A stretch of DNA of 62,658 nt, taken from the NCBI GenBank assembly GCA_035314825.1, contig DATFYX010000069.1, positions 1-62,658 of the forward strand, in the 5' to 3' direction. The notes below the pieces were generated by a model that saw nothing but the letters and a program-made list of their open reading frames with translations, made no database searches and was not told where the DNA came from. Position numbers and translations under genes: made by a program. Source of the DNA: Candidatus Eremiobacteraceae bacterium (lineage in GTDB: Bacteria > Vulcanimicrobiota > Vulcanimicrobiia > Eremiobacterales > Eremiobacteraceae). This document shows positions 25,800 through 39,196 of the stretch, piece by piece (positions within the stretch are counted from its first letter, which is position 1; every line of letters begins with the position of its first letter).

Positions 25800-25874
25800 G
25801 ATGCGGCCGAGTTCTGCGAGCGGGCAGTTTTGTCCCGGCGTCCCAGCCGCTTGACGCCGAGGGGTCGCAAATAT

Positions 25875-25895
25875 CCGAACGGATGGACCGTTCGG
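25875..25895. promoter_or_regulatory. Inverted repeat upstream of kdp operon
   Basis: CCGAACGG and CCGTTCGG form perfect 8-bp arms around a 5-base centre, 63 bp before the first kdp-region ORF. A shorter dyad, CTGGAC and GTCCAG with 4 bases between (25933-25948), lies 10 bp before that ORF. They are candidate operator sites in the divergent promoter region shared with the aminotransferase gene. No clear -35/-10 pair is visible, and neither dyad is followed by a T run, so they do not look like terminators. Confidence 0.4.
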
Positions 25896-25958
25896 AGGAT
25901 GGCCCGCGTCTTGACCTTATGCTAGGATGCCCCTGGACAACCGTCCAGAGGCTTGAAA

Positions 25959-26042
25959 ATGCTCGATCTCATCCTGCTGTTCTGCACGCTCGTGATCTTC
26001 TTCGCGTTCGACCGCTACACGGTCGCCCTGGAGCATCTCTAG
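25959..26042 (+). CDS. 27-residue membrane microprotein preceding kdpF
   Basis: ATG 25959 opens a 27-codon frame that ends in TAG overlapping the kdpF GTG. The peptide is one hydrophobic helix (LDLILLFCTLVIFFAF) followed by DRYTVALEHL. Short ORFs of the same shape (hydrophobic, FFA, then a charged tail ending near RL/HL) often precede kdpF in other genomes. The overlap with kdpF argues that it is translated. A role as an extra small Kdp subunit is inference. Confidence 0.6.
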   Translation: MLDLILLFCTLVIFFAFDRYTVALEHL

Positions 26043-26128
26043 TGGCTGACCAGATCGTCGGGCTCGCGCTCACGCTCCTCGGCCTGTGGTATCTCACCTA
26101 CGCCATGCTGCGGCCGGAGAAATTCTAG
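26042..26128 (+). CDS. kdpF: Potassium-transporting ATPase small subunit KdpF
   Basis: A 28-residue single-helix peptide starting at GTG 26042 (ADQIVGLALTLLGLWYLTYAMLRPEKF). The LxYAMLRPEKF ending is the KdpF hallmark. KdpF stabilises the KdpABC complex in the membrane. It starts inside the stop codon of the preceding microprotein and is 7 bp from kdpA, so the small genes and kdpA are translated as a unit. Confidence 0.93.
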   Translation: MADQIVGLALTLLGLWYLTYAMLRPEKF

Positions 26129-26135
26129 GAACCAT

Positions 26136-27836
26136 ATGAACCTGTACGGCTGGCTGCAAGCGCTCGTCTTCTTCGCGCTCGTCCTGCTCGTGACGCGGCC
26201 GCTGGGATCGTATATGGCGCGCGTCTTCGAGGGCGAGCGCACCATGCTGTCCCCCGTGCTTGCGCCGATCGAGCGGCTGATCTACCGTATCTGCCGCGTC
26301 GACACGGCCAAGGAGATGTCGGCCGGGTCGTACCTGCTCGCCACCCTGGCCTTCAGCCTCGTCGGCCTGGCCTATCTGTACGTATTGCTGCGCACCCAGA
26401 AGTGGCTTCCGCTCAACCCCCAGCATTTCGACAACCTGACCGGCGACAACGCGTGGAACGTCGCGATCAGCTTCATGACCAACACGAACTGGCAGTTCTA
26501 TTCCGGCGAGAGCACGATGAGCTATCTGTCGCAGATGGCCGGTCTCTCCTGGCACAATTTCGTCTCGGCCGCCGTCGGCATCACCATCGCGATCGCGGTC
26601 ATCCGCGGCGTGTGCCGCACGGACAAGCCGACGGTCGGCAACTTCTGGGTGGACGTCACCCGCGCTTCCCTCTACGTGCTGCTGCCGATCAGCGTCGTGG
26701 GCTGCCTGCTGCTCGTGTGGCAAGGCGTGCCGCAGAATTTCCATTCGTACCAGGATATCGTCTCGATCGAAGGCTTCAAACAGACGATCACCGGCGGCCC
26801 CATGGCCTCGCAAGAAGTGATCAAGGAGCTGGGCACCAACGGCGGCGGCTTCGTCAACGCGAATTCTGCCGCGCCGAACGAGAACCCGACGCCCTTCAGC
26901 AATCTACTCGAGATGTTCCTCATCTTCGCGATCGGCGCCGCGCTGACGTACACCTACGGCCGTTACGCCAAGGACCAGCGTCAAGGCTGGGCGATTTTCG
27001 CCGCGATGGCCATCCTGTTCGCCGGCGGCTTCACGGTCGCGTACGCCGCAGAGTCCGCGGGCAATCCGATCGTGCACAGCCTCGGCGTCACGGGCGGGAA
27101 CATGGAGGGCAAGGAGTGCCGCTTCGGCGTCGCCGCGTCGTCGCTGTTCGCCACCGTCACCACCGACACGTCGTGCGGCGCCGTCGATGCGATGCACGAC
27201 TCGTTCACGCCGTTGGGCGGCTTGGTGCCGCTCGGGGACATGCAGCTCGGCGAGATCGTCTTCGGCGGCGTCGGCACGGGCCTTTACGGCATGATCCTCT
27301 TCGTGGTGCTCACCGTGTTCATCGCCGGGCTGATGGTCGGGCGCACGCCTGAGTTCCTCGGCAAGAAGATCGAACGCAAGCAGGTGCAGCTCGCGATCCT
27401 CGCCGCGCTTGTGCTGCCGGTGTTCGCGCTGGTCCCGACCGCGATCTCCGTGATCGTCCCGGCCGGAACCGCGACCTTGGGCAACGCCGGCCCGCATGGT
27501 TTCTCCGAGCTCCTGTACGGCTTCACCTCGACCACCGAGAACAATGGCAGCGCATTCGCCGGGCTGGGCGGCAACATGTACTTCAACATCCTGATGGGCA
27601 TCGTGATGCTGTGCGGCCGGTTCTTGTTCCTCATCCCGGCGGTGCTGCTCGCAGGTTCGCTTGCCGGCAAGCCGCGCACGCCCGCCACCACCGGGACGTT
27701 CCAGACCCACTCGCCGATCTTCATCGGTCTGCTTCTCGGTGTCATCATCATCGTCGGTGCGCTGACGTTCTTCCCCGCCGATGCGCTCGGCCCGATCGTC
27801 GAGCATCTGCTCATGCTGCAAGGAAAGACTTTCTAG
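26136..27836 (+). CDS. kdpA: Potassium-transporting ATPase subunit A
   Basis: The channel-like K+-binding subunit of the KdpFABC pump. The 566 residues include four selectivity-filter-like segments of the SKT superfamily: TNTNWQFYSGE, GTNGGGFVNANS, TTDTSCGAVDAMHDSF and TSTTENNGSAFAGL. These are the expected KdpA filter sequences. At least ten hydrophobic spans are evident. The stop abuts the kdpB start with no gap. Confidence 0.98.
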   Translation: MNLYGWLQALVFFALVLLVTRPLGSYMARVFEGERTMLSPVLAPIERLIYRICRVDTAKEMSAGSYLLATLAFSLVGLAYLYVLLRTQKWLPLNPQHFDNLTGDNAWNVAISFMTNTNWQFYSGESTMSYLSQMAGLSWHNFVSAAVGITIAIAVIRGVCRTDKPTVGNFWVDVTRASLYVLLPISVVGCLLLVWQGVPQNFHSYQDIVSIEGFKQTITGGPMASQEVIKELGTNGGGFVNANSAAPNENPTPFSNLLEMFLIFAIGAALTYTYGRYAKDQRQGWAIFAAMAILFAGGFTVAYAAESAGNPIVHSLGVTGGNMEGKECRFGVAASSLFATVTTDTSCGAVDAMHDSFTPLGGLVPLGDMQLGEIVFGGVGTGLYGMILFVVLTVFIAGLMVGRTPEFLGKKIERKQVQLAILAALVLPVFALVPTAISVIVPAGTATLGNAGPHGFSELLYGFTSTTENNGSAFAGLGGNMYFNILMGIVMLCGRFLFLIPAVLLAGSLAGKPRTPATTGTFQTHSPIFIGLLLGVIIIVGALTFFPADALGPIVEHLLMLQGKTF

Positions 27837-29885
27837 ATGATCTCAGAGCGACGGCTGGAGCGCCGGCCCAAGGCGCGCTCACTCTTCGACCGCGCGATCA
27901 TGTCGCGCGCGGTGGTCGACGCGTTCGTCAAGCTCGACCCGCGCTGGCAGTTCCGCAACCCCGTCATGTTCGTGTGCGAGATCGGCGCGATCGTCACGCT
28001 CGGCTTCTTCTTCCGCGATCTGCGCACGCATGGCCCGGCGGGGTTCGATCTGGCCATCTCGATCTGGTTGTGGTTCACCGTCCTGTTCGCGAATTTCGCC
28101 GAGGCGGTCGCCGAGGGGCGCGGAAAAGCGCAAGCCGATTTCCTGCGGCGCACCAAGACCGACACCAAGGCGCGGCGCGTCGTCGATGGGCGTGAGGAGC
28201 TCGTCAGCTCGACCGAACTGCACAAGGGCGACGTCTTCCGCGTCAACGCCGGCGAGCTCATCGCCGCCGACGGCGACGTGGTCGAAGGCGCGGCGACGGT
28301 CGACGAGTCCGCCATCACCGGCGAGTCAGCGCCGGTCATCCGCGAAGCGGGCGGCGATCGCAGTTCCGTGACCGGCGGCACGCGCGTGCTGTCGGACTCT
28401 ATCCTCGTGCAGGTCACCGCAAATCCGGGCGAGGCCTTCCTCGATCGCATGATCGCGCTGGTCGAAGGCGCCACGCGCCAGAAGACGCCCAATGAGATCG
28501 CGCTCTCGATCTTGATCTCGGGCCTCACCATCATCTTCCTCATCGCGGTCGCGACGCTCTCGCCGTACTCGCTGTACGCGGGCACCCCGCAGTCAGTGAC
28601 CGTGCTCATCGCGTTGCTCGTCTGCCTGATCCCGACCACCATCGGCGGGCTGCTCTCGGCCATCGGCATCGCCGGTATGGATCGCGTGCTGCAGCGCAAC
28701 GTGCTGGCGATGAGCGGCCGGGCGGTCGAGGCCGCGGGCGACGTCGACACGCTGCTGCTCGACAAGACCGGCACGATCACGCTCGGCAACCGTCAAGCGA
28801 CCGAGTTCGTGACGGCCCCCGGCGTGGACATCAAAGACGCGGCTCGCGCCGCGTATCTCTCTTCGCTGTCCGACGAGACGCCGGAAGGCCGCTCGATCAT
28901 CGTGCTGGCCGAGCAATACGGCGCCGCGCTGGGCGGCAAGCCGGACAATGCGACGTTCGTGCCCTTCTCCGCCTACACGCGCATGAGCGGCGTGGATATC
29001 GCCGGTGGACCATCTATCCGCAAGGGCGCACCCGACGCCATCCGCGCCTGGGCGCGCGAGCGCGGCGGCGACCCCGGTGACGTGCTGGGCGCCGACGTCG
29101 ACCGCATCGCGCGCTCCGGCGGCACGCCGCTGCTGCTGGCGCAGGACGGCAAAGTGCTCGCCGCCATCCACCTTAAGGATATTCTCAAGCCCGCCATGCA
29201 GCAGCGCTTCGACCGCCTGCGCGCGATGGGCATCCGTACCATCATGATCACCGGCGACAACCCGCTCACCGCCGCCACGATCGCCCGCGAGTCCGGCGTC
29301 GACGATTTCTTGGCCGAAGCCACGCCGGAGACCAAGATGGCGCTCATCAAGCGCGAGCAGGAGAGCGGCCGCCTCGTCGCCATGACCGGCGACGGCACCA
29401 ACGACGCACCCGCGCTGGCCCAAGCCGACGTCGGCGTCGCCATGAACTCGGGCACGCAGGCCGCCAAAGAGGCCGCGAATATGGTCGACCTCGATTCGGA
29501 TCCGACCAAGCTCATCGAGATCGTCGAGATCGGCAAGCAGCTGCTCATGACGCGCGGCGCGCTGACGACCTTCTCGATCGCCAACGACGTCGCCAAGTAT
29601 TTCGCGATCCTGCCGGTGATGTTCGCGACCGCCTACCCGGTCATCAGCGCGCTCAACGTGATGCAGCTGAACCCGCACAGCGCGATCCTCTCGGCCGTGA
29701 TCTTCAATGCGTTGATCATCGTCGCGCTGATCCCGCTGGCGCTGCGCGGCGTCGCCTACCGGCCGATCGGAGCGAACATCGTGCTTCGCAACAACGTGCT
29801 GATCTACGGCGTCGGCGGCGTGATCATCCCGTTCCTGGGCATCAAGGCGATCGACTTGCTGCTCGGCGTACTGCACCTCTCGTAA
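27837..29885 (+). CDS. kdpB: Potassium-transporting ATPase subunit B (P-type ATPase)
   Basis: The P-type ATPase subunit that powers high-affinity K+ uptake. The 682 residues contain the actuator TGES-type motif ([12 protein letters not shown]), the phosphorylation motif [12 protein letters not shown] with Asp309, the nucleotide-binding domain, and the hinge [22 protein letters not shown]. All catalytic residues are present. It directly follows kdpA and precedes kdpC by 13 bp. Confidence 0.98.
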
Positions 29886-29898
29886 GGACTATTCGACC

Positions 29899-30498
29899 AT
29901 GAATGCGCAAGACGTCAAAGACAACACCAGCAACCATCTGGTCACCTCGCTGCTCTACACCGTGCTCAGCGTGGTGATGCTCGGCCTGGTCTATCCCGCT
30001 GTCATGACCATCGTCGCGCAGCTGCTCTTCCACAATCAGGCGAACGGTTCGATGGTCTATGTCGCAGGCAAACCCGTCGCATCGGCGATCATCGGACAGC
30101 AGTGGACAAAGCCGCAGTATTTCCATGGCCGTCCGTCGGCCGCCGGCAAAGGCTACGATCCGACCTCGACGGGCGGCACCAACCTCGGTCCGACCTCGAA
30201 GAAGCTTATCGATGCGACCCGAGATGCGATCGCCGCCGTGCGCAAGGAGAACCCGCAGGCGAGCGGCCCGATCCCCATGGATCTGGTGACCTCAAGCGGC
30301 AGCGGCATCGATCCCGACATCAGCCCCGAGGCGGCGTATTACCAGTCGCCGCGCGTGGCGGCCGCGCGAGGCATGACGGTTGCGCAACTGCACGCCATCA
30401 TCGACCAGCACGTGCAGGCGCGGACCCTCGGCGTGTTGGGAGAGCCTCGCGTCAACGTTTTAGAACTCAACCTGGCGCTCGACGCCGGAAAGCGATAG
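29899..30498 (+). CDS. kdpC: Potassium-transporting ATPase subunit C
   Basis: Single-span accessory subunit that bridges KdpA and KdpB. The 199 residues carry an N-terminal hydrophobic span (LLYTVLSVVMLGLVYPAVMTIVAQLL), then YFHGRPSAAGKGYDPTSTGGTNLGPTSKKL, DLVTSSGSGIDPDISPEAAYYQSPRVA and the C-terminal LGVLGEPRVNVLELNLAL. All are standard KdpC motifs. It is followed after 10 bp by the porin gene. Confidence 0.97.
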   Translation: MNAQDVKDNTSNHLVTSLLYTVLSVVMLGLVYPAVMTIVAQLLFHNQANGSMVYVAGKPVASAIIGQQWTKPQYFHGRPSAAGKGYDPTSTGGTNLGPTSKKLIDATRDAIAAVRKENPQASGPIPMDLVTSSGSGIDPDISPEAAYYQSPRVAAARGMTVAQLHAIIDQHVQARTLGVLGEPRVNVLELNLALDAGKR

Positions 30499-30508
30499 CC
30501 CAAGAACC

Positions 30509-31669
30509 ATGCGTTTCCTAGTCTTCGTGGCGGCGGCCCTCGCAGGCGCCGCCCTCCCGGCGCTCGCGCTCGCCGATCAGCCCTCCCCGTCTCCGTCGCC
30601 TGTGCCGTCGGCCTCAGCGTCGCCTTCGCCGTCGCCGGCCGTGCAGCTGCACGGCGTTTTCAGCGCGACCGAGATCTTCACCAGCGGCGTCAACGCGACC
30701 GGCAGCTTCGATACGCCGACCGGCGCCGACTTGGCATCGCGCTTCAACGTCAGCAACGCCTTCGCGATCTTGACCAAGAACCAAGGGACCTTACAGTACG
30801 CGTTGCAAGCCGGCGCGTACAGCATCCCTGTCGTCGGCTTCGCCGGCAACAAGACGATCGCGGGCAACGCGAACACCGGCCTGTACGGACCAGTGCCGCT
30901 CGCGTATCTCGAGTACGTGCCGAGCTCGAACTTCAACGTGAGCGCGGGCGTGCTCGCGACGCTCACCGGCGCCGAGTCGACCTTCACGTATGAAGATTGG
31001 AACATCCAGCGCGGGGCGGTGTGGAACGTCGAGAACGCCGTCAGCCGCGGCGTGCGCATGAGTTTCACGACGGGCAAACTGAGCGTCACCGGCGGCGCGA
31101 ACGACGGCTTCTACTCGGGCAGCTGGGTCGCGGCCGAGGGTTCTCTGAACTACGTTCCGGACTCGAATGAATCGCTGCTGTTCGTGGCTCTCATCCCGAA
31201 CGCCCAGACGCCTCCGAATCCGACCGCCTCGGTCGCCAACAAGGAGCTGCTGAACCTCGTCTACACCCGCACGCTCGGCAAGCTGCAGATCGCGCCGTAC
31301 GTGCTGTGGGCGCACTCCCCGTCCGCGCCGGGCCTGGGATATACCAGTTCGGAGAGCGCGTTCGGCGCAGCCGTGCTGGCGGACATGAACTTTTCAAGCA
31401 AGTGGTCGACGGCGCTGCGCTATGAGACGCTGCACAACTCGAGCATGCCCGGCGCCACGAGTCTGAACGCGGACCTCGTCGGCTACGGACCCGGCAGCGG
31501 CGTCAACACGCTGACGCTGACGCCGGAGTGGAAGGACGGGCCCGTGTTCGCGCGCGTGGACTTCTCCGAAGCCTGGCCCGGCTACTACACGCCCGGACTC
31601 GCGTTCGGCACGGGCGGCACCGGGAACAGCCAGTTCCGCACCGCGCTCGAGTTGGGGATCCAGCTCTAA
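30509..31669 (+). CDS. Outer-membrane beta-barrel porin-like protein linked to kdp
   Basis: A 386-residue exported protein. A signal peptide (RFLVFVAAALAGAALPALALA) is followed by a Ser/Pro spacer with alternating SPSP. The remainder alternates short amphipathic strands (FNVSAGVLATLTG, LQIAPYVLWAHS) and ends GIQL, as expected of a beta-barrel. It resembles the Bbp2/OmpL-like putative porins. Lying 10 bp after kdpC on the same strand, it probably lets K+ cross the outer membrane for the Kdp pump; that link is inference. The last 4 bases overlap the convergent sensor gene. Confidence 0.78.
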   Translation: MRFLVFVAAALAGAALPALALADQPSPSPSPVPSASASPSPSPAVQLHGVFSATEIFTSGVNATGSFDTPTGADLASRFNVSNAFAILTKNQGTLQYALQAGAYSIPVVGFAGNKTIAGNANTGLYGPVPLAYLEYVPSSNFNVSAGVLATLTGAESTFTYEDWNIQRGAVWNVENAVSRGVRMSFTTGKLSVTGGANDGFYSGSWVAAEGSLNYVPDSNESLLFVALIPNAQTPPNPTASVANKELLNLVYTRTLGKLQIAPYVLWAHSPSAPGLGYTSSESAFGAAVLADMNFSSKWSTALRYETLHNSSMPGATSLNADLVGYGPGSGVNTLTLTPEWKDGPVFARVDFSEAWPGYYTPGLAFGTGGTGNSQFRTALELGIQL

Positions 31670-33861
31670 GACGGATCAAGGGGCGGCGGCGCGAGCACGA
31701 GCAGTTCGCGCGCGCCCGCCTCGAGCACGCGTCGCGCAAACGTCGGACCGAGCGGCCAACGCGGCGTCGCGCGCGCGCCTTCCACCGCGAGGAACGCGTT
31801 GTGCTCACGCGCGAGCGGCACGATCGCTTTGGCGGCGTCAGCGGCGCTGGCATAGATCCAGCGGGCGTGCACCGCTTCGGCGGCGGCCTTGAGCTCCGCC
31901 AAAACGGCGGGCGGCGTCACGCGGCCCTTCTGTTGGATGTGCACGACGATGTAATCGGCATCGAGCCGCGCGCGCAGCTTGGCTCCGCGATAGATGAGCT
32001 TCACATCCCGCGCGCGCGCACCCACGCCCAACATCAGCGCGGCGACCGGCGGCGGCATGGGCTCGAGCGTCCGCGTGCGCACCGTCTCGCGCAACGCCAG
32101 TTCGCGCAGTCCCGCAAGGTTCTCGGTGCGAAAGAAGTTCGAGAGCGACGCCTCGATGCGGTTGGCGGGGTAGATAAAGCCCGCACGCAGCCGTTCGCGC
32201 AGGATCTCCGGCGAGACGTCGACCAAGACGAGATCGTCCGCCATGCCGAGGATCCAGTCGGGCAGCGTCTCGCGCACGGTCACCCCGGTCAGCCGGGTCA
32301 CCGAGTCTCCCAGGCCCTCGAGATGCTGGATGTTGAGCGTGGTGAGCACTGATATTCCGGCCGCCTGGATCGCGAATACATCAATGTAGCGCTTGGCCGA
32401 CGCGCTGCCCGGCGCGTTGGTGTGCGCGAGCTCGTCGACCAAGACGACCTGTGGGTGGCGCGCGATGATGGCATCGCGATCCATCTCCTCGTAGGTGATG
32501 CCGTTGTAGGTGCCGACCCTGCGCGGCACCACTTCAAGCCCTTCGAGCTTGCGCGCCGTCTCCGCGCGGCCGTGCGTCTCGATGTAGCCGACCACCACGT
32601 CGACGCCCGCGTCTTTGAGCTGATGGGCGCGGTCGAGCATCGCATAGGTCTTGCCGCTTCCGGCCGCCGAGCCGAGGTAGATCGTCAGCCGGCCATACGC
32701 GTTGCGCAGCGGGTTGTCGCCGCGGTCCCGGTGAGCGTCGGCCGCGTTGGACGCGCCGGCGGCCGGCACCGCCCCTGCCACAGCGCCGATCGGCTTGTCG
32801 CTGGCCACCAGCAGGTCCCGGTCGGCGCCGCGGCTCAGCAGCGTGCGCGCGATATCGCCCTTTGGCATCGCGATCAGCGCGCCGGCGAGCGACTCGACTT
32901 GCGGCGTCGAGCCACCGCCCGGCCAGGGGACGTTTTTGCCGCCGCTCTTTGCGGTCGCCGCCGCGCACGTGTCGCGATCCATGCCGGGCTCGCACGCGAC
33001 TTCGAGCACCAGGTCGAACAGCGACGCGATCGATGCGACGCGCTTGAGATAGGCGTTCGCGTCGATGCCATCGGTCAGCAATGCGACGACGGTCGACACG
33101 CGGGTCGGCGCGACTTTCGGTATGGTGAAGTCATCGACCAAGCGCAACATGAGCTCGCGCATCTGCGCGAGCGCGGCTAGGCGGAACGGCCCGGCCAGCG
33201 CGCGATTGATGTCCTCCGAGCGCACGATCTTGCCCTCGCGCAGCCGCGCTTGCAATTGCTCCGGCGATACGTCGACCGCGACCAGCTGGTCGACGCCGTT
33301 GATGAACGACATCGGCACGATTTCGCGCACGGGAAAACCGATGATGCGCTCTGCGGCGGGCGCCACCGACTCGATGTGCTGCACGTTGATCGCCCCCAGC
33401 ACGCCGATGCCGTGTTTGACCAGTGCCGCGGCGTCTTGCCAGCGCTTCGAGTGCACCCCTCCCGGGAGGTTCGCGTGCGCGAGCTCGTCCAGCACGATGA
33501 CCTCGGGCTTCGCCGCCAAGGCGGCGTCGTAATCGAAGTCTTCAAACGTGGAGCCGGCCATCGTCACCACGCGCGGCGCGATCCGCGGCAGCGACGCGGC
33601 CAACTCCTCGAGATCAGGCCGGCCTTTGGTCTCGAGCGCGCCGATGTAGACGCGCCGCCCCGTCTTCTTCAGCGCGAGCGCGTCCTCGACCATGCGTCGC
33701 GTCTTGCCGGCGCCCGGCGCGATACCCAGATAGACGCGCAGACGCGGCCCCATGCCGAGATCGGAAAGCAGCCCCGCAGCGGCCTTCGCGCGAGAGTCGA
33801 TCGCGTCCACGCGTTCCCGTTCGCCCCGCAAAGACGGCGTCCATGCGCATGGGAGGAACAT
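31666..33861 (-). CDS. Tandem KdpD sensor-domain protein lacking histidine kinase
   Basis: A 731-residue soluble protein holding two copies of the KdpD N-terminal input module. Copy 1 has Walker A GIAPGAGKT (Lys53) and VIVLDELAHANLPGG (Asp125). Copy 2 has GSAAGSGKT (Lys404), VGYIETHGRAET and VLVDELAHTNAPGS near residue 475. Each copy is followed by a USP-like segment. No transmembrane four-helix bundle, GAF or kinase domain follows. Canonical KdpD has one module fused to these. I start at ATG 33859-33861; GTG 33808-33810 (VDAIDSRAKAAAGLL) is an alternative. It is divergent from the histidine kinase gene and probably feeds it; that coupling is inference. Confidence 0.85.
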   Translation of the reverse strand: MFLPCAWTPSLRGERERVDAIDSRAKAAAGLLSDLGMGPRLRVYLGIAPGAGKTRRMVEDALALKKTGRRVYIGALETKGRPDLEELAASLPRIAPRVVTMAGSTFEDFDYDAALAAKPEVIVLDELAHANLPGGVHSKRWQDAAALVKHGIGVLGAINVQHIESVAPAAERIIGFPVREIVPMSFINGVDQLVAVDVSPEQLQARLREGKIVRSEDINRALAGPFRLAALAQMRELMLRLVDDFTIPKVAPTRVSTVVALLTDGIDANAYLKRVASIASLFDLVLEVACEPGMDRDTCAAATAKSGGKNVPWPGGGSTPQVESLAGALIAMPKGDIARTLLSRGADRDLLVASDKPIGAVAGAVPAAGASNAADAHRDRGDNPLRNAYGRLTIYLGSAAGSGKTYAMLDRAHQLKDAGVDVVVGYIETHGRAETARKLEGLEVVPRRVGTYNGITYEEMDRDAIIARHPQVVLVDELAHTNAPGSASAKRYIDVFAIQAAGISVLTTLNIQHLEGLGDSVTRLTGVTVRETLPDWILGMADDLVLVDVSPEILRERLRAGFIYPANRIEASLSNFFRTENLAGLRELALRETVRTRTLEPMPPPVAALMLGVGARARDVKLIYRGAKLRARLDADYIVVHIQQKGRVTPPAVLAELKAAAEAVHARWIYASAADAAKAIVPLAREHNAFLAVEGARATPRWPLGPTFARRVLEAGARELLVLAPPPLDPS

Positions 33862-33882
33862 CGCCGCACCGAAGTCGCCCCC

Positions 33883-35472
33883 GTGCAGCGCTCCTGGATC
33901 CCGTATGCTTGCATCGCGTTGGTCGTGGCCGCGTGGGTCATCGACATGTTCACGCCGCAGCTGTTCGTAGCGGCGATCCTTTTCGATGCCCCGGTCGCGC
34001 TGACCGCACTGGCGCTCAACCGCCGCTTCACCTGGACCATGGTCGGCGTGTGCCTGGTGCTCAATGCGGTCGCGGGCTGGTATAACGGCGTCCACGAAGG
34101 CCACTACGATTCCATCGCGACGCTCGACCGCGTGCTCGCCGGCCTGTCCACTGTGCTCGTCGGCGGCCTCGCCGTGGCGACGCAGTCCGCGGCCCGGCTC
34201 GCCGGCGAGTCGGCCACTCGCGACCACGTCGCCAAGCGCGCCGACGCGCTGCGCCGCGCGGGCGAGCGCATGCGCGAATCGCTGAGCCTCGAGCTGGTGT
34301 GGCGCGAAGTCGTGCGTCAGGCGAACGCTCTGCTAGAGAGCGATGCGGCCGCCTTGTTCCCGTGCGAGGACGGACGCCTGACCGGAGCCTCGTTCGCCGC
34401 GACGCGCGGATCCGGCGACGTCGAGACGCGCACCGAACGCCCGGGGCCGGGCGTGTGGACGGCGCTGCAAAAAGCGGTAGAGGACCGCAACATCGTCTTC
34501 TTGAGCCAGGCGGATGCGCTGGCTCGCTTCACGCTCGGCAACATCGGAGCGCGCACGGCGCTGATCGCTCCGCTGGGTTCTGGGACCGAGGCCGTCGGCG
34601 TGCTGCTGGTGGAATGGCGCGAGCGGGAACGCGAGCTCGATTCCGAGCTTGAGAACTTGGTCCAAGCCTTCGCCGATCAGGGTGCGCGCGCGATCGAACA
34701 GGCAAAACTGGTCGAGGCGCTGGCGTCCACCAATGACCAGCTCCAATCCGCCAATCACGAGCTCGTCGAGCGCAACCAGGTGATCCGCGACATCGTCTAT
34801 GCGCTCTCGCACGATTTGCGCACGCCGTTGATGGCGGCCGGCATGACCATGCATCAGGCGCTCGCGGGCGCGTATGGCCGGCTTCCGGCGGAGTACGTCG
34901 AGGTGCTGCGCCGTTCGCTGAGCTCCAACGAAGAGCTCGAGCGGCTGGCGCAGACGCTGCTGCTGGTCGCGCGCTACGAATCGCGCGAGCAGTCGCACGC
35001 GCGCCGGCCCGCCGATCTCGCCAAGCTGGCGCGCTCCGTTATCGATGAGCTCGAATCGCTGTGGCGCTCCAAGCGCATCGACTGTCACGTCGAAGGCGTG
35101 GACGTGCTCGCGCACGTGGACGAGAGCGAAGTGCGCCGCGCGCTGATCAACCTGATCGCGAACGCCGTCACGTGGACGCCGGAGGGCGGAAGCATCGTGG
35201 TCCAAGTGCAGGAGCGCGATGGCGAGGCCGTGGTCGCAGTGAGCGACGACGGCTTCGGCGTGCCGGAGGAAAACCGGGCCACGCTCTTCCAGCGCTTTCA
35301 CGGCGACGGCACTGCGCGCCGCGGCGGCGGCACCGGCCTTGGCCTGTACATCGTGCGCCGCATCGCCGAAAGCCACGGCGGCTCGATCTCCTATACGCCG
35401 CGCGAGCCGCGCGGCAGCACCTTCACGCTGACCTTGCCGCTCGCCTCGCCGGCGCAGGTGCCGCATGGCTAA
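33883..35472 (+). CDS. Membrane sensor histidine kinase with GAF-like domain
   Basis: A 529-residue kinase starting at GTG 33883. Three hydrophobic spans lie in the first 70 residues (WIPYACIALVVAAWVID, FVAAILFDAPVALTALAL, WTMVGVCLVLNAVAGWY). A GAF-like domain occupies about 120-270, followed by a coiled-coil. The kinase core has H-box ALSHDLRTPL with His310, N-box LINLIANAVTWTPEGG, and G-boxes SDDGFGVPEE and GGGTGLGLYIVRRI. It overlaps the response-regulator gene by 8 bp, so the pair is co-translated. Position next to kdp and the split KdpD input protein suggests K+ or osmotic control. ATG 33946 is a shorter start option that loses the first span. Confidence 0.87.
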   Translation: MQRSWIPYACIALVVAAWVIDMFTPQLFVAAILFDAPVALTALALNRRFTWTMVGVCLVLNAVAGWYNGVHEGHYDSIATLDRVLAGLSTVLVGGLAVATQSAARLAGESATRDHVAKRADALRRAGERMRESLSLELVWREVVRQANALLESDAAALFPCEDGRLTGASFAATRGSGDVETRTERPGPGVWTALQKAVEDRNIVFLSQADALARFTLGNIGARTALIAPLGSGTEAVGVLLVEWRERERELDSELENLVQAFADQGARAIEQAKLVEALASTNDQLQSANHELVERNQVIRDIVYALSHDLRTPLMAAGMTMHQALAGAYGRLPAEYVEVLRRSLSSNEELERLAQTLLLVARYESREQSHARRPADLAKLARSVIDELESLWRSKRIDCHVEGVDVLAHVDESEVRRALINLIANAVTWTPEGGSIVVQVQERDGEAVVAVSDDGFGVPEENRATLFQRFHGDGTARRGGGTGLGLYIVRRIAESHGGSISYTPREPRGSTFTLTLPLASPAQVPHG

Positions 35473-36109
35473 GACCAAGGTGCTCATCGTCGAAGACCAT
35501 GCGCTCACGCGCACCGGTCTGCGCACCGCGTTGGATTGCAATGCTTCACTTGAAGTCGTGGGCGAAGCCAGCGACGGAGAGGCGGGATGGGAAGAGACCT
35601 TGCGTCTCAAGCCGGATGTGGCCGTCGTCGATATCGGACTGCCGGGCATCGACGGCATCGAGCTCACGCGCCGCATCCGCCAGAGCCTGCCGAAGACCAA
35701 AGTGCTGATCCTCACGATGCACGACATGGACGAGGAGGTCGTCGCGGCGCTCGCCGCCGGCGCGGATGCCTATTGTCTCAAGTCGGCCGATCCCGAGCGC
35801 ATCGTCGATGCCGTCAAAGCGGCCGCGTCAGGCGGCGCGTACTTCGATCCCGGCATCGCGCACGTCGTGCTGCGCGCGTTCAATCGCCCCGACCGTGCGG
35901 CTGCAAGCGCGGAGGGGTCGCCGCTGTCGCCGCGCGAGACGGAGATCCTCGGGCTGATCGCTGCGGGCACGAGCAATGCGGAGATCGCCCAGCGGCTCGC
36001 GATCGGACTCGGCACGGTCAAAGGCCACATCCGCGACATCATGGAGAAGCTTTCGGCATCCGATCGGACGCACGCCGCCGTCATCGCGCTGCGCCGTGGA
36101 CTAATCTAG
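35465..36109 (+). CDS. NarL/FixJ-type response regulator
   Basis: A 214-residue regulator. The receiver domain has acidic residues VEDH, phospho-acceptor Asp56 in VVDIGLPG, Thr in LTMHD and Lys in YCLKSAD. The C-terminal LuxR-type helix-turn-helix reads LSPRETEILGLIAAGTSNAEIAQRLAIGLGTVKGHIRDIMEKL. Classical KdpE is OmpR-type, so this is a different output module next to kdp. It probably receives phosphate from the overlapping kinase gene. The inverted repeats before kdp are candidate targets. Confidence 0.95.
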   Translation: MAKTKVLIVEDHALTRTGLRTALDCNASLEVVGEASDGEAGWEETLRLKPDVAVVDIGLPGIDGIELTRRIRQSLPKTKVLILTMHDMDEEVVAALAAGADAYCLKSADPERIVDAVKAAASGGAYFDPGIAHVVLRAFNRPDRAAASAEGSPLSPRETEILGLIAAGTSNAEIAQRLAIGLGTVKGHIRDIMEKLSASDRTHAAVIALRRGLI

Positions 36110-39100
36110 CTACGAGCGGTAGCCCAGCAGCCGGCGCAACACGCCGGTGAACGTCAGCAGCGCCAGCGGTATCAGGAACCATCCGATGATGCGCTCCGCG
36201 TTGGCGAGATGCCACGCGGTCACAGGCGTGCCGGCGACCGGGCATGCCGACACGCGCCACTGCGTCACCAACGCGGGATCGAACGACGCATAGATGGCGA
36301 TGCTCAGCGCAGCGGCGTCTGGGGCAGGCGCCCGTGCGTCGCACGGATAGGGCTCCGTCGACTGGGCAGCGGTGGCGTTCGGCGCGGTCGCGTCTTGCGA
36401 CGCAGGCGGCATCGCCATGCCTGCCACTGCCGCGAACAGGAGCGCCGCGAGCAGGGGCGGCGCGAGCAGCCATGCCAGCATGCGCCACGGACGCACGCCG
36501 TAACCGGCGACCGCACGCATGGTGCGATCGGCGATGAACCGCAGCAGGTCCGCCCAAAACGTGGCCGTCCAGATCGGCGACCGCAATGGTTTGATGCCGT
36601 CGCCGGCGAGTTCGCGGCGCATGTAGAACGCGTCCGCAGCCATGGTTCGCTGTGCGCGCGCCGGGCGTCCGGCCGTGCGCGCGGTCCGCTCGACCCGCCC
36701 CGCCGCGGGAAATGCCGTGTCGTCGGCCGCCTGCGCAGCCGATTGCAGCACGATGAAATGTCCGCCGCGCAGGTCAAGCGTGATGCCGCGATCGAGCGAC
36801 CGTGGCGCCGCCGGCGCCTGCGCCAGCTCGCCATTCGTCGGACCAGAACGCTTCGGTGCCGGCGGGGCGACTTCGGCGGCGCGTTCGCCGAGCTCGAGGC
36901 TGCGGAAGTGCATCCAGCGCAGGTCGAGCGGCGCTCCGAACGTGGCGTCGCTGAAGCGCGCTTGCGCGCCGACCCGCGCGCCGATAAATCTCGCCTCGGC
37001 GCCGAAAGCTGCGCGCTCGAACGACAGGTCGGTCTTCACATCGGAGCCGTCGAACACCGCACGTTGCGCGAACGTGCAGCGCGAGAGATCGGCGTGTCCG
37101 CCGATGCGGATCGCATCGAAGCGCGCATCGGCTTCGAACGCGGCATCCGCGAACTCCATGTTCGCTCCGACGGTGATCCCTTCCAGGTCCGCCCGTCCGC
37201 CGAAACGAGCATTGCCCGCGAGCAGCGCAGCGCCGAAGATCGAACCTGAGAACTCGGCCGACTGCGCAAAGCGCGCGCCTGCGAAGGTCGCTTGTTTGGC
37301 GACGCTCATGCGATGGAACACGCTGGGGCCTGCAAACGTGGCCCCGTGCGCGTCGAGCGCGCCTGAGATCGTCACATCATTGCAGCGCAGCTCGCCGTGG
37401 AACGACGCCTCGGCCAGGTCCAGCGACCCGGCGGTCTCTAAGCCGTCGAGCAGCACGCTTGCGGCGAAGGCCGCCTTGGCGAACGACGTGCTCGCGCCGA
37501 TGCGCGCCGAACGCGCGTCGGCGATCCCGTCGAAGCTCGCGCCTGCACAGTCAAGCTGTCCGCCAGCCGACAGCGCGCCCAACTGCGCTTCGCCGACGAA
37601 ATGCGCGCCTGCCAGATCAACCGCGCCGCCCACGCGTCCGACACCCAGATTGACGCCGCGGGCGAAGGTCGCGCCGGCCGCGTGCAGGGCGCCGCCCAGC
37701 GCGATGGCGCGTAGAGAGCACGCGCCGCGCAGCGTGGCGCGCTCGAGGTGCAAGTCGGCACCGATCTTCGCGCCTGCGAACGTCGCGTCGCCCTCGAAGC
37801 GCGCCTCGGTCGCGATCACGTTTGCCTTAGCCGATAGATTCGCGCACTGCGCGTCGCGCTCGAAAACCGCACCGCTCAGATCGAGATCGCCCGCACAGTC
37901 CGCTTCGCTCAGGTCGGCGCGCTCGGCGAACGTGGCGTGCGCCGCGACGATCGAGCCCGCGCGCAGCGCTTGCAGACGTACGCCGCCTCGAAACGCCGTC
38001 CAGCGGAAGCAGGCGGCGCCTTCAGCGCGCGCGTTGCTGAAATCCACATCGCGTTCGAACGTAGCGCGCGTGCAGTCAAGGCTGCCCAGGCGCGCGCTCG
38101 AAAACGCCGCCGGCGCGCGAAAGGTCGCATGCGTGAAGTCCCCGGCGTGCGCCACGCGCGCGTCGGACAGATCAGCGCCCTGCTCGAAGGTGGCCGATTC
38201 GCAGCTCAGCGCCCCGCCGATATCGGCTTGATGCATCAGCATCGCGCCTTTGAAAACCGCATCCTCCAAGTTGACGTCGCCGCCGACGCCGACGCCGGCG
38301 AACGTCGCATCGCGCTCAAAGGTCGATTGCAGGCACAGCAGGCGCCGCGCGATGCGGGCCTCCTTGAGCGAGACGGGTCCTTGGAACGAGATGTTCGAGA
38401 GCGTCAGCTCGCCGAGCTGCGCCGCCTCGAAGCCCACCTCGCCGGCAAAGGATGCTGCCGCTGCCAGCACCGCATCGGCGACGCGCGCCGCGCGAAACGC
38501 CGCTCGCCCACTGACGGACGCTTCGCTCAGCTCGAGCTGTCCGCCGATCTGCGCGCGTTCGAAGGTGAGATCGCCCTCAAACGCCGTTCGCTTCGCGCTG
38601 GTGTGACGGATGACCGAGAGCTCGCTGAAGACCGCGTCGCGCTCTATGCGCGCCTCGTCGAGGATGAGATCCGCGCCGATCTGCGGTTCGACAAGCCGCA
38701 CGCCGCCGCGCACCGTCGCGCCGGCCGCGCTGAGCGAGACGCCGACCCGCGTGCTCTTGCCCGCAAGTGCGCCCTCGACGTGGACGCCGTCAAACGTCAG
38801 CGTGCCGCCGACGACGGCGTTGTCCAAGATGACATCGCCGGCGAACCGTGCGCCGGCGAACGAGACATCGCTCTCGGCGCGCAGGCCGGCGAAGTGCGTA
38901 GCCCCTTCGAAAACGGTGCCGTCGAAGCGCGCGGCCTGCAGAAAGCGCGCCTCGCCGAGATTGACGCTGGAAACGCGCGCGTTGGTGAGAGAGAAGGCGG
39001 CCGGGATATACCGCCCTTCGAGTTCGAGCGCGCCGGCGACGATCGCGTTGTCGATGTCGACCGCCAACCCCAAGCGCACCGCTTCGACGATCCACTCGGC

Positions 39101-39196
39101 GCGCACGATGCGCGCGGTCTCCGGGCCTTCGCCCGGCAGATGCAGCGCCGTGCCGGCTAGAATCGCGTGCAGCTTTTCGTCGTCGACGACGTCCAT
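36110..39196 (-). CDS. Giant pentapeptide-type beta-helix protein with C-terminal membrane domain
   Basis: A 1028-residue protein. About residues 60-800 consist of a degenerate repeat of roughly 20 residues in the style AxFxGxAxFxGAxIGGxLDLxGAxF. Hydrophobic residues recur every five positions, the pattern of a right-handed quadrilateral beta-helix. Near the end, residues 905-930 (MLAWLLAPPLLAALLFAAVAGMAM) and about 998-1022 are hydrophobic, separated by a loop with ALSIAIYASFDPALVTQW. This is the layout of pentapeptide proteins fused to a two-helix ion-channel unit, but the TxGYG selectivity filter is missing. The start overlaps the ribH stop by one base. Function is unknown. Confidence 0.8.
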   Translation of the reverse strand: MDVVDDEKLHAILAGTALHLPGEGPETARIVRAEWIVEAVRLGLAVDIDNAIVAGALELEGRYIPAAFSLTNARVSSVNLGEARFLQAARFDGTVFEGATHFAGLRAESDVSFAGARFAGDVILDNAVVGGTLTFDGVHVEGALAGKSTRVGVSLSAAGATVRGGVRLVEPQIGADLILDEARIERDAVFSELSVIRHTSAKRTAFEGDLTFERAQIGGQLELSEASVSGRAAFRAARVADAVLAAAASFAGEVGFEAAQLGELTLSNISFQGPVSLKEARIARRLLCLQSTFERDATFAGVGVGGDVNLEDAVFKGAMLMHQADIGGALSCESATFEQGADLSDARVAHAGDFTHATFRAPAAFSSARLGSLDCTRATFERDVDFSNARAEGAACFRWTAFRGGVRLQALRAGSIVAAHATFAERADLSEADCAGDLDLSGAVFERDAQCANLSAKANVIATEARFEGDATFAGAKIGADLHLERATLRGACSLRAIALGGALHAAGATFARGVNLGVGRVGGAVDLAGAHFVGEAQLGALSAGGQLDCAGASFDGIADARSARIGASTSFAKAAFAASVLLDGLETAGSLDLAEASFHGELRCNDVTISGALDAHGATFAGPSVFHRMSVAKQATFAGARFAQSAEFSGSIFGAALLAGNARFGGRADLEGITVGANMEFADAAFEADARFDAIRIGGHADLSRCTFAQRAVFDGSDVKTDLSFERAAFGAEARFIGARVGAQARFSDATFGAPLDLRWMHFRSLELGERAAEVAPPAPKRSGPTNGELAQAPAAPRSLDRGITLDLRGGHFIVLQSAAQAADDTAFPAAGRVERTARTAGRPARAQRTMAADAFYMRRELAGDGIKPLRSPIWTATFWADLLRFIADRTMRAVAGYGVRPWRMLAWLLAPPLLAALLFAAVAGMAMPPASQDATAPNATAAQSTEPYPCDARAPAPDAAALSIAIYASFDPALVTQWRVSACPVAGTPVTAWHLANAERIIGWFLIPLALLTFTGVLRRLLGYRS

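What the first reader, a model, noticed from the sequence alone, without database searches (positions are those of the whole stretch)
31666..36109. Split and duplicated KdpD: two input modules in one protein, kinase and regulator elsewhere
Canonical KdpD is one input module plus USP, membrane helices, GAF and kinase, paired with OmpR-type KdpE. Here one 731-residue protein has two input modules (Lys53 and Lys404 P-loops) and no kinase. A divergent gene encodes a three-span GAF-type kinase, overlapped by a NarL-type regulator. This is a different wiring of potassium sensing beside a complete kdpFABC operon.
Basis: partly seen in the sequence, partly recalled or inferred. Interest (0 to 1): 0.76.

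Follow-up and report, generated by a model that had tools for sequence, protein, structure and literature searches.

The report
Two-headed KdpD without histidine kinase
An uncultured bacterial lineage (Eremiobacterota) regulates its emergency potassium pump with a double-headed version of the pump-braking domain of KdpD that has no histidine kinase of its own, while a separate two-protein switch of a kind known from Deinococcus probably turns the pump genes on; the split is known, but the conserved doubling is not described in the papers we could search.

Summary
Window 31666-33861(-) encodes 731 aa with two KdpD-N (PF02702) modules and no kinase; a divergent GAF/HisKA/HATPase kinase and an overlapping NarL-type regulator follow. 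The genome has no canonical KdpD. The tandem is the only KdpD form in 48 of 61 sampled class members (Ca. Eremiobacterota), 45 of them with kdpA; the layout kdpABC> <tandem | HK> RR> is conserved. The wiring is only partly new. KdpD-N is a known serine kinase that brakes KdpB (PMC11018627). Split KdpD-N plus a separate kinase/regulator is known in Deinococcus radiodurans, whose regulator (52% identical) and kinase (33%) are homologous, and that regulator binds and activates kdp there (PMC5716572). New here: a class-wide KdpD-N duplication, module 2 canonical, module 1 keeping Walker A/B but losing the adenine-contact residue (W39 to R/H); a conserved operator (two TCCGNNCGGA, 13 bp apart) at kdp; no c-di-AMP synthase found in this genus; and, in a sister class, similar tandems beside a Kup K+ transporter. 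Best reading: module 2 phosphorylates KdpB, module 1 is a diverged regulatory or second-target head, the HK-RR pair controls transcription. New variant of a known kind; function untested.

The parts
25874..25896 (+). Predicted operator of the kdp operon: TCCGAACGGA-TGG-ACCGTTCGGA, two palindromic 10-mers 13 bp apart (start to start)
   Evidence: EM motif found upstream of (porin-)kdp in 33 of 36 class loci with that region; log-likelihood 299 against 52-54 for shuffled sequences; only exact two-copy match in the 2.55-Mb genome, though the reversed control pattern also gives 1; absent from 18 sister-class loci
25959..26042 (+). 27-aa hydrophobic small ORF in front of kdpF
   Evidence: read in the window; similar small ORFs visible at the same place in relatives (sequences printed)
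26042..26128 (+). kdpF (28 aa, GTG start)
   Evidence: assigned by position and likeness to known KdpF (inference)
26136..27836 (+). kdpA
   Evidence: PF03814 E 4.7e-236
27837..29885 (+). kdpB, presumed target; TGES serine at residue 164 (codon at 28326-28328)
   Evidence: TGES present in every KdpB of the class loci that covers the site
29899..30498 (+). kdpC
   Evidence: PF02669 E 5.6e-71
30509..31669 (+). OmpL-like porin, probably part of the kdp operon
   Evidence: PF07642 E 2.7e-51; porin lies directly upstream of kdpA in 14 relatives and the operator then lies upstream of the porin
31666..33861 (-). Tandem KdpD-N protein, 731 aa, no kinase domain, no clear membrane span (ATG 33861; an alternative ATG at 33759)
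33118..33750 (-). Module 1: KdpD-N fold; K53, T54, D125, E126 and R206 kept; W39 equivalent is R55, H63 equivalent is K79
   Evidence: nearest solved fold is KdpD-N 2r8r, E 1.5e-16
32068..32700 (-). Module 2: canonical serine-kinase residues K404, T405, Y406, H430, D476, E477, R557
   Evidence: phmmer match to 2r8r E 1.3e-62
33883..35472 (+). Membrane GAF-HisKA-HATPase histidine kinase (start codon uncertain)
   Evidence: 33% identical to the kdp sensor kinase of D. radiodurans over 520 alignment columns
35465..36109 (+). NarL/LuxR-type response regulator
   Evidence: 52% identical to the kdp response regulator of D. radiodurans

Best explanation
The locus separates two jobs that E. coli KdpD combines. 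(1) Transcription: the membrane HK and NarL-type RR form a Deinococcus-type two-component system that switches on the (porin-)kdpFABC operon through the operator at 25874-25896 when K+ is low. (2) Protein-level brake: the soluble tandem KdpD-N protein phosphorylates the TGES serine of KdpB (Ser164 here) when K+ is sufficient and stops the pump; module 2 does the catalysis. Module 1 is an old duplicate that keeps Walker A, Walker B and the arginine but has replaced the residue that contacts the adenine and the ETH motif; most likely it acts in cis as a regulatory head (nucleotide or partner sensing, intramolecular pairing) that sets the activity of module 2, and stands in for the c-di-AMP control used by short KdpD/Usp proteins elsewhere. 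Shown by sequence: domain make-up, conservation, gene order, operator, residue patterns, homology of HK/RR to the D. radiodurans pair. Inferred: phosphorylation of KdpB by module 2, role of module 1, RR binding to this operator, the direction of the K+ signal.
For: Module 2 keeps the residues that are essential in the E. coli serine kinase (PMC11018627): Walker A GKT, Walker B DE 48/48, R190 equivalent 48/48, aromatic at 39 in 43/48. KdpB TGES is invariant where the site is covered. Tandem and kdpA: both in 45, neither in 12, tandem alone in 3, kdpA alone in 1 (72% complete genome) of 61. The real HK homologue (44 genomes) occurs only with the tandem and is divergent and adjacent in all but one of about 42 loci that hold both. 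HK and RR match the D. radiodurans SK/RR, whose RR is required for kdp induction and binds the kdp promoter (PMC5716572); among 72,556 plasmid records the HK hits only 25, 23 of them Deinococcus. The operator lies at kdp/porin-kdp, not between tandem and HK. The diadenylate cyclase family is absent from the window genome and its two congeners although 55/61 genomes have it. Module 1 forms one clade and keeps its signature, so its divergence is old and maintained.
Against: No biochemistry exists for any tandem protein. Three genomes keep the tandem without kdpA, and one has a second tandem away from kdp, so KdpB may not be the only target. Most sister-class tandems sit beside kup, not kdp. The full-length AlphaFold2 model is too poor (pLDDT 52.5) to show how the modules pack. 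The Deinococcota kdp promoters do not carry this operator, so RR binding to it cannot be transferred from that experiment. Absence of a cyclase rests on draft genomes.
Confidence: 0.55

Rival explanations
1. Both modules are working serine kinases with different targets: module 2 acts on KdpB, module 1 on another K+ uptake protein (Trk system, or Kup in the sister class).
For: Module 1 keeps Walker A in all sequences that cover it, Walker B DE in 48/49 and the arginine in 49/49. Tandem proteins survive without kdp in three genomes and as a second copy in one; a TrkA pair lies near the tandem in about 18 loci, including two of the orphans. All four non-kdp tandems of the sister class are directly upstream of a kup gene.
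Against: The residue that contacts adenine is lost in module 1 (R/H in 47 of 48), which may abolish ATP binding; in E. coli the W39A/R190A double change nearly abolishes activity (PMC11018627). No target is identified. The window genome has no kup. TrkA nearness may be plain chromosomal neighbourhood.
Confidence: 0.2
2. One reading: the tandem protein is the detached input unit of the divergent histidine kinase and works by docking to it, so that HK plus tandem equals a reassembled KdpD.
For: Divergent adjacency and near-perfect co-occurrence; in E. coli the KdpD N-terminal domain matters for signalling (title and abstract of PMC2714519).
Against: The HK lacks the DUF4118 membrane domain of KdpD and belongs with the Deinococcus-type kdp kinases, which work with a single KdpD-N chain encoded in the pump operon. 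KdpD-N alone is an enzyme acting on KdpB (PMC11018627). Orphan tandems persist without the HK.
Confidence: 0.12
3. The tandem is a c-di-AMP-controlled serine kinase like the short KdpD/Usp of Deinococcus geothermalis, with two Usp domains as paired receptors.
For: 55 of 61 class genomes have a diadenylate cyclase; DgKdpD is stimulated by c-di-AMP (PMC11018627).
Against: No cyclase in the window's genus nor in three other genomes, all of which carry the tandem and two of which also carry kdp; neither Usp-like segment of the window protein shows the Firmicutes SXS binding motif (that motif may not apply outside Firmicutes); no c-di-AMP riboswitch found.
Confidence: 0.08
4. The duplication is a neutral leftover with no function for module 1.
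For: Module 1 evolves faster than module 2 (mean identity 61% against 70%).
Against: Retained in every genome of the class that has any KdpD, with Walker motifs and a conserved signature of its own, GKT-(R/H)-R and ETKGRPDL.
Confidence: 0.05

Closest known systems
Deinococcus radiodurans kdp locus: kdpBAC with KdpD-N (DR_B0088), divergent sensor kinase and response regulator (PMC5716572; record NC_000958)
   Same: KdpD-N without kinase, separate membrane HisKA kinase overlapped by 8 bp by a NarL-type regulator; RR 52% and HK 33% identical to those here
   Different: KdpD-N there is single (365 aa, with a detectable Usp domain) and follows kdpC in the pump operon; here it is doubled, lies on the other strand and faces the HK; the promoter palindrome differs
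Short KdpD/Usp atypical serine kinase (D. geothermalis) and the E. coli KdpD N-terminal serine kinase (PMC11018627)
   Same: Module 2 has all the tested catalytic residues; the target TGES serine is present in KdpB
   Different: A second, diverged module; no c-di-AMP synthase of the known family found in this genus
NCBIfam NF038185, KdpD-like non-kinase potassium sensor
   Same: Matches twice, best over 388-702
   Different: 500.2 bits, below the curated cut-off of 550; the model describes one module
Canonical KdpD/KdpE (E. coli)
   Same: KdpD-N domain; presence beside kdpFABC
   Different: No DUF4118, GAF or kinase on the KdpD chain; the regulator is NarL-type, not OmpR-type

Membership tests
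Canonical KdpD histidine kinase | KdpD-N, Usp, four membrane helices, GAF and kinase core on one chain | tested here: not met
   Only PF02702 x2 on the chain; no DUF4118 in the genome
KdpE (OmpR-type regulator) | OmpR/PhoB winged-helix output domain | tested here: not met
   GerE (LuxR/NarL) output; no genome protein reaches the KdpE cut-off, best 178 of 325 bits
KdpD-N atypical serine kinase | Walker A, Walker B DE, W/Y39 and R190 equivalents in module 2 | tested here: met
KdpD-N atypical serine kinase | The same residues in module 1 | tested here: not met
   Walker A, Walker B and R190 met; residue 39 is R or H in 47 of 48
KdpD-N atypical serine kinase | Phosphorylates the TGES serine of KdpB | not testable with these tools
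   Target serine present
c-di-AMP-regulated short KdpD/Usp | Diadenylate cyclase in the genome | tested here: not met
   PF02457 absent in window genome and both congeners, present in 55/61 genomes
c-di-AMP-regulated short KdpD/Usp | SXS-type c-di-AMP motif in Usp | tested here: inconclusive
   Not seen in either Usp-like segment by eye; motif defined for Firmicutes only
Deinococcus-type kdp two-component system | Full-length homology of HK and RR and linkage to kdp | tested here: met
   33% and 52% identity; kdp-linked in both phyla
Deinococcus-type kdp two-component system | RR binds the kdp promoter and is needed for induction | not testable with these tools
   Shown only in D. radiodurans (PMC5716572); conserved operator here

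The most novel reading that the evidence does not exclude
KdpD-N serine-kinase modules form a wider family of stand-alone, two-headed controllers of K+ uptake: one version brakes the Kdp pump in this class, another is paired with Kup transporters in a sister class, and the diverged first head is a pseudokinase-like sensor or a kinase for a second transporter. Post-translational control by KdpD-N would then extend beyond KdpB.
Probability: 0.3. Interest if true: 0.75.

Novelty: new variant of a known kind. Interest (0 to 1): 0.55.

Why it matters
It shows that the serine-kinase part of KdpD can be uncoupled from histidine-kinase signalling, doubled and kept across a whole bacterial class. It supplies natural material to ask what controls this kinase where c-di-AMP is not available, and whether it acts on K+ transporters other than Kdp (the Kup-linked tandems). 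It also gives a concrete operator and regulator pair for kdp transcription outside KdpDE.

Tried and rejected
Full-length structure prediction from three sequences: pLDDT 52.5, not interpreted. Module 1 alone: usable core only; nearest fold KdpD-N. The first motif search returned the kdpF coding end; discarded and rerun on the region upstream of the small ORFs. Single or repeated origin of the duplication across classes: not decided; module 1 of both groups as one clade has 85% support in one tree, and class modules 1+2 as one clade is not rejected (p-AU 0.59). Rfam search: no riboswitch. A scan of named genomes with the tandem returned only two Eremiobacterota records and a Desulfonema MAG whose KdpD has one module. 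Plasmid search: of 436 matching records the 15 best-ranked are not tandems, each match spanning 1.1 kb or less. Other phyla could not be sampled with the genome search.
Full report
Observation. The 731-aa protein at 31666-33861(-) has two KdpD-N (PF02702) modules and no kinase domain; the divergent gene encodes a GAF-HisKA-HATPase membrane kinase, overlapped by 8 bp by a NarL-type regulator; kdpFABC is complete. The start codons are not proven: 33861 or 33759 for the tandem, 33883 for the kinase.

Genome context. The genome (2.55 Mb, 97% complete) has no other KdpD-N, no DUF4118, no KdpE over its cut-off and no Kup.

Class-wide conservation. Of 61 genomes, 48 have a clear KdpD-N and every one is the tandem form (G050 is split by contig ends). 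Tandem and kdpA occur together in 45, neither in 12. The kinase occurs in 46 at E <= 1e-40; two of these are partial hits in genomes without tandem, so 44 are taken as real, all with the tandem. The order kdpABC> <tandem | HK> RR> holds in nearly all loci that reach far enough; in three the kdp operon is turned round. Exceptions: G029 has HK-RR between kdpC and tandem, and a second tandem elsewhere; G010 has a tandem with remnants of HK and RR and no kdp; G043 has a tandem and no kdp; in G035, which also lacks kdpA, the contig ends beyond the tandem.

What the modules are. KdpD-N of E. coli is an atypical serine kinase that phosphorylates KdpB Ser162; it needs Walker A, Walker B D109/E110 and the W39/R190 pair (PMC11018627). 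Module 2 keeps these; module 1 keeps all but residue 39 (R or H in 47 of 48) and has K for H63 in most. KdpB carries TGES wherever the site is covered, Ser164 in the window. Module 2 is more conserved than module 1 (70% against 61% mean identity), and both far more than the Usp-like segments (43% and 37%). Module 1 aligns best by fold with the KdpD-N crystal structure 2r8r, module 2 by sequence.

Who controls transcription. The HK and RR are homologous over their length to the kdp sensor kinase and regulator of D. radiodurans (33% and 52%), where the RR is required for induction and binds the kdp promoter (PMC5716572). In 72,556 plasmid records the HK finds only Deinococcus, Allomeiothermus and Oscillatoria, and two further Deinococcota loci checked are kdp-linked. 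Upstream of kdp, or of a porin gene that precedes kdpA, 33 of 36 class loci share an operator of TCCGNNCGGA repeats 13 bp apart. Two loci not used for training (L034, L057) also score 20 bits or more. It is absent in 18 sister-class loci and in the Deinococcota promoters, which show another palindrome. In the window genome the two-copy pattern occurs once, at kdp; the reversed control pattern also occurs once, so the count alone is not evidence. No operator was seen between tandem and HK, which fits a brake that is not co-regulated with the pump.

Signal. The short KdpD/Usp of D. geothermalis is activated by c-di-AMP (PMC11018627), but the window's genus lacks the cyclase family and no SXS motif is visible in the Usp-like segments. 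Control by module 1 is the proposal here; it is inference.

Beyond kdp. In a sister class, one tandem follows kdpC (L097) with a separate DUF4118 kinase, and all four other tandems are directly upstream of kup. Three of these four are from one genus, so this is two lineages, not four independent cases. Whether the two groups of tandems share one duplication is undecided.

Verdict. Real, conserved and partly known: the split is a Deinococcus-type arrangement, the doubling and its divergence are the new part. Novelty was judged against the papers and collections available here; phyla outside Eremiobacterota, apart from plasmids and one scan of named genomes, were not surveyed for tandems.

Noticed in passing
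L098:4404-8513, L099:4898-9215, L101:5129-9451, L102:8257-12580: Sister-class tandem KdpD-N genes lie directly upstream of a Kup-family K+ transporter in all four cases.
   Followed up: partly
L094:12861-15206, L095:4251-6560, L096:4104-7733: A second KdpD-like protein with a shortened KdpD-N module follows kdpC; in L094 and L095 a canonical KdpD with an adjacent regulator sits on the other side of kdpABC.
   Followed up: no
window 30509-31669: An OmpL-like porin is part of, or next to, the kdp operon in many class members, suggesting that outer-membrane K+ entry is co-regulated with the pump.
   Followed up: partly
window 25959-26042: A 27-aa hydrophobic ORF precedes kdpF, and similar ones are visible in relatives; a possible additional small pump subunit.
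   Followed up: no
L049:7155-8846: A second, lone kdpA follows kdpC; several other genomes also hold two kdpA genes.
   Followed up: no
L049:13727-15080 and about 17 other loci: A pair of TrkA-type proteins lies close to the tandem/HK/RR genes, forming a K+ island.
   Followed up: partly
L118, L119, L120 kdp promoter regions: Deinococcota kdp promoters contain a different palindrome (TTGGCCANNTGGCCAA-like), possibly the operator of the homologous regulator.
   Followed up: no
window 36110-39196: A 1028-aa pentapeptide-repeat protein follows the regulator; it is kept in the congener G001.
   Followed up: no
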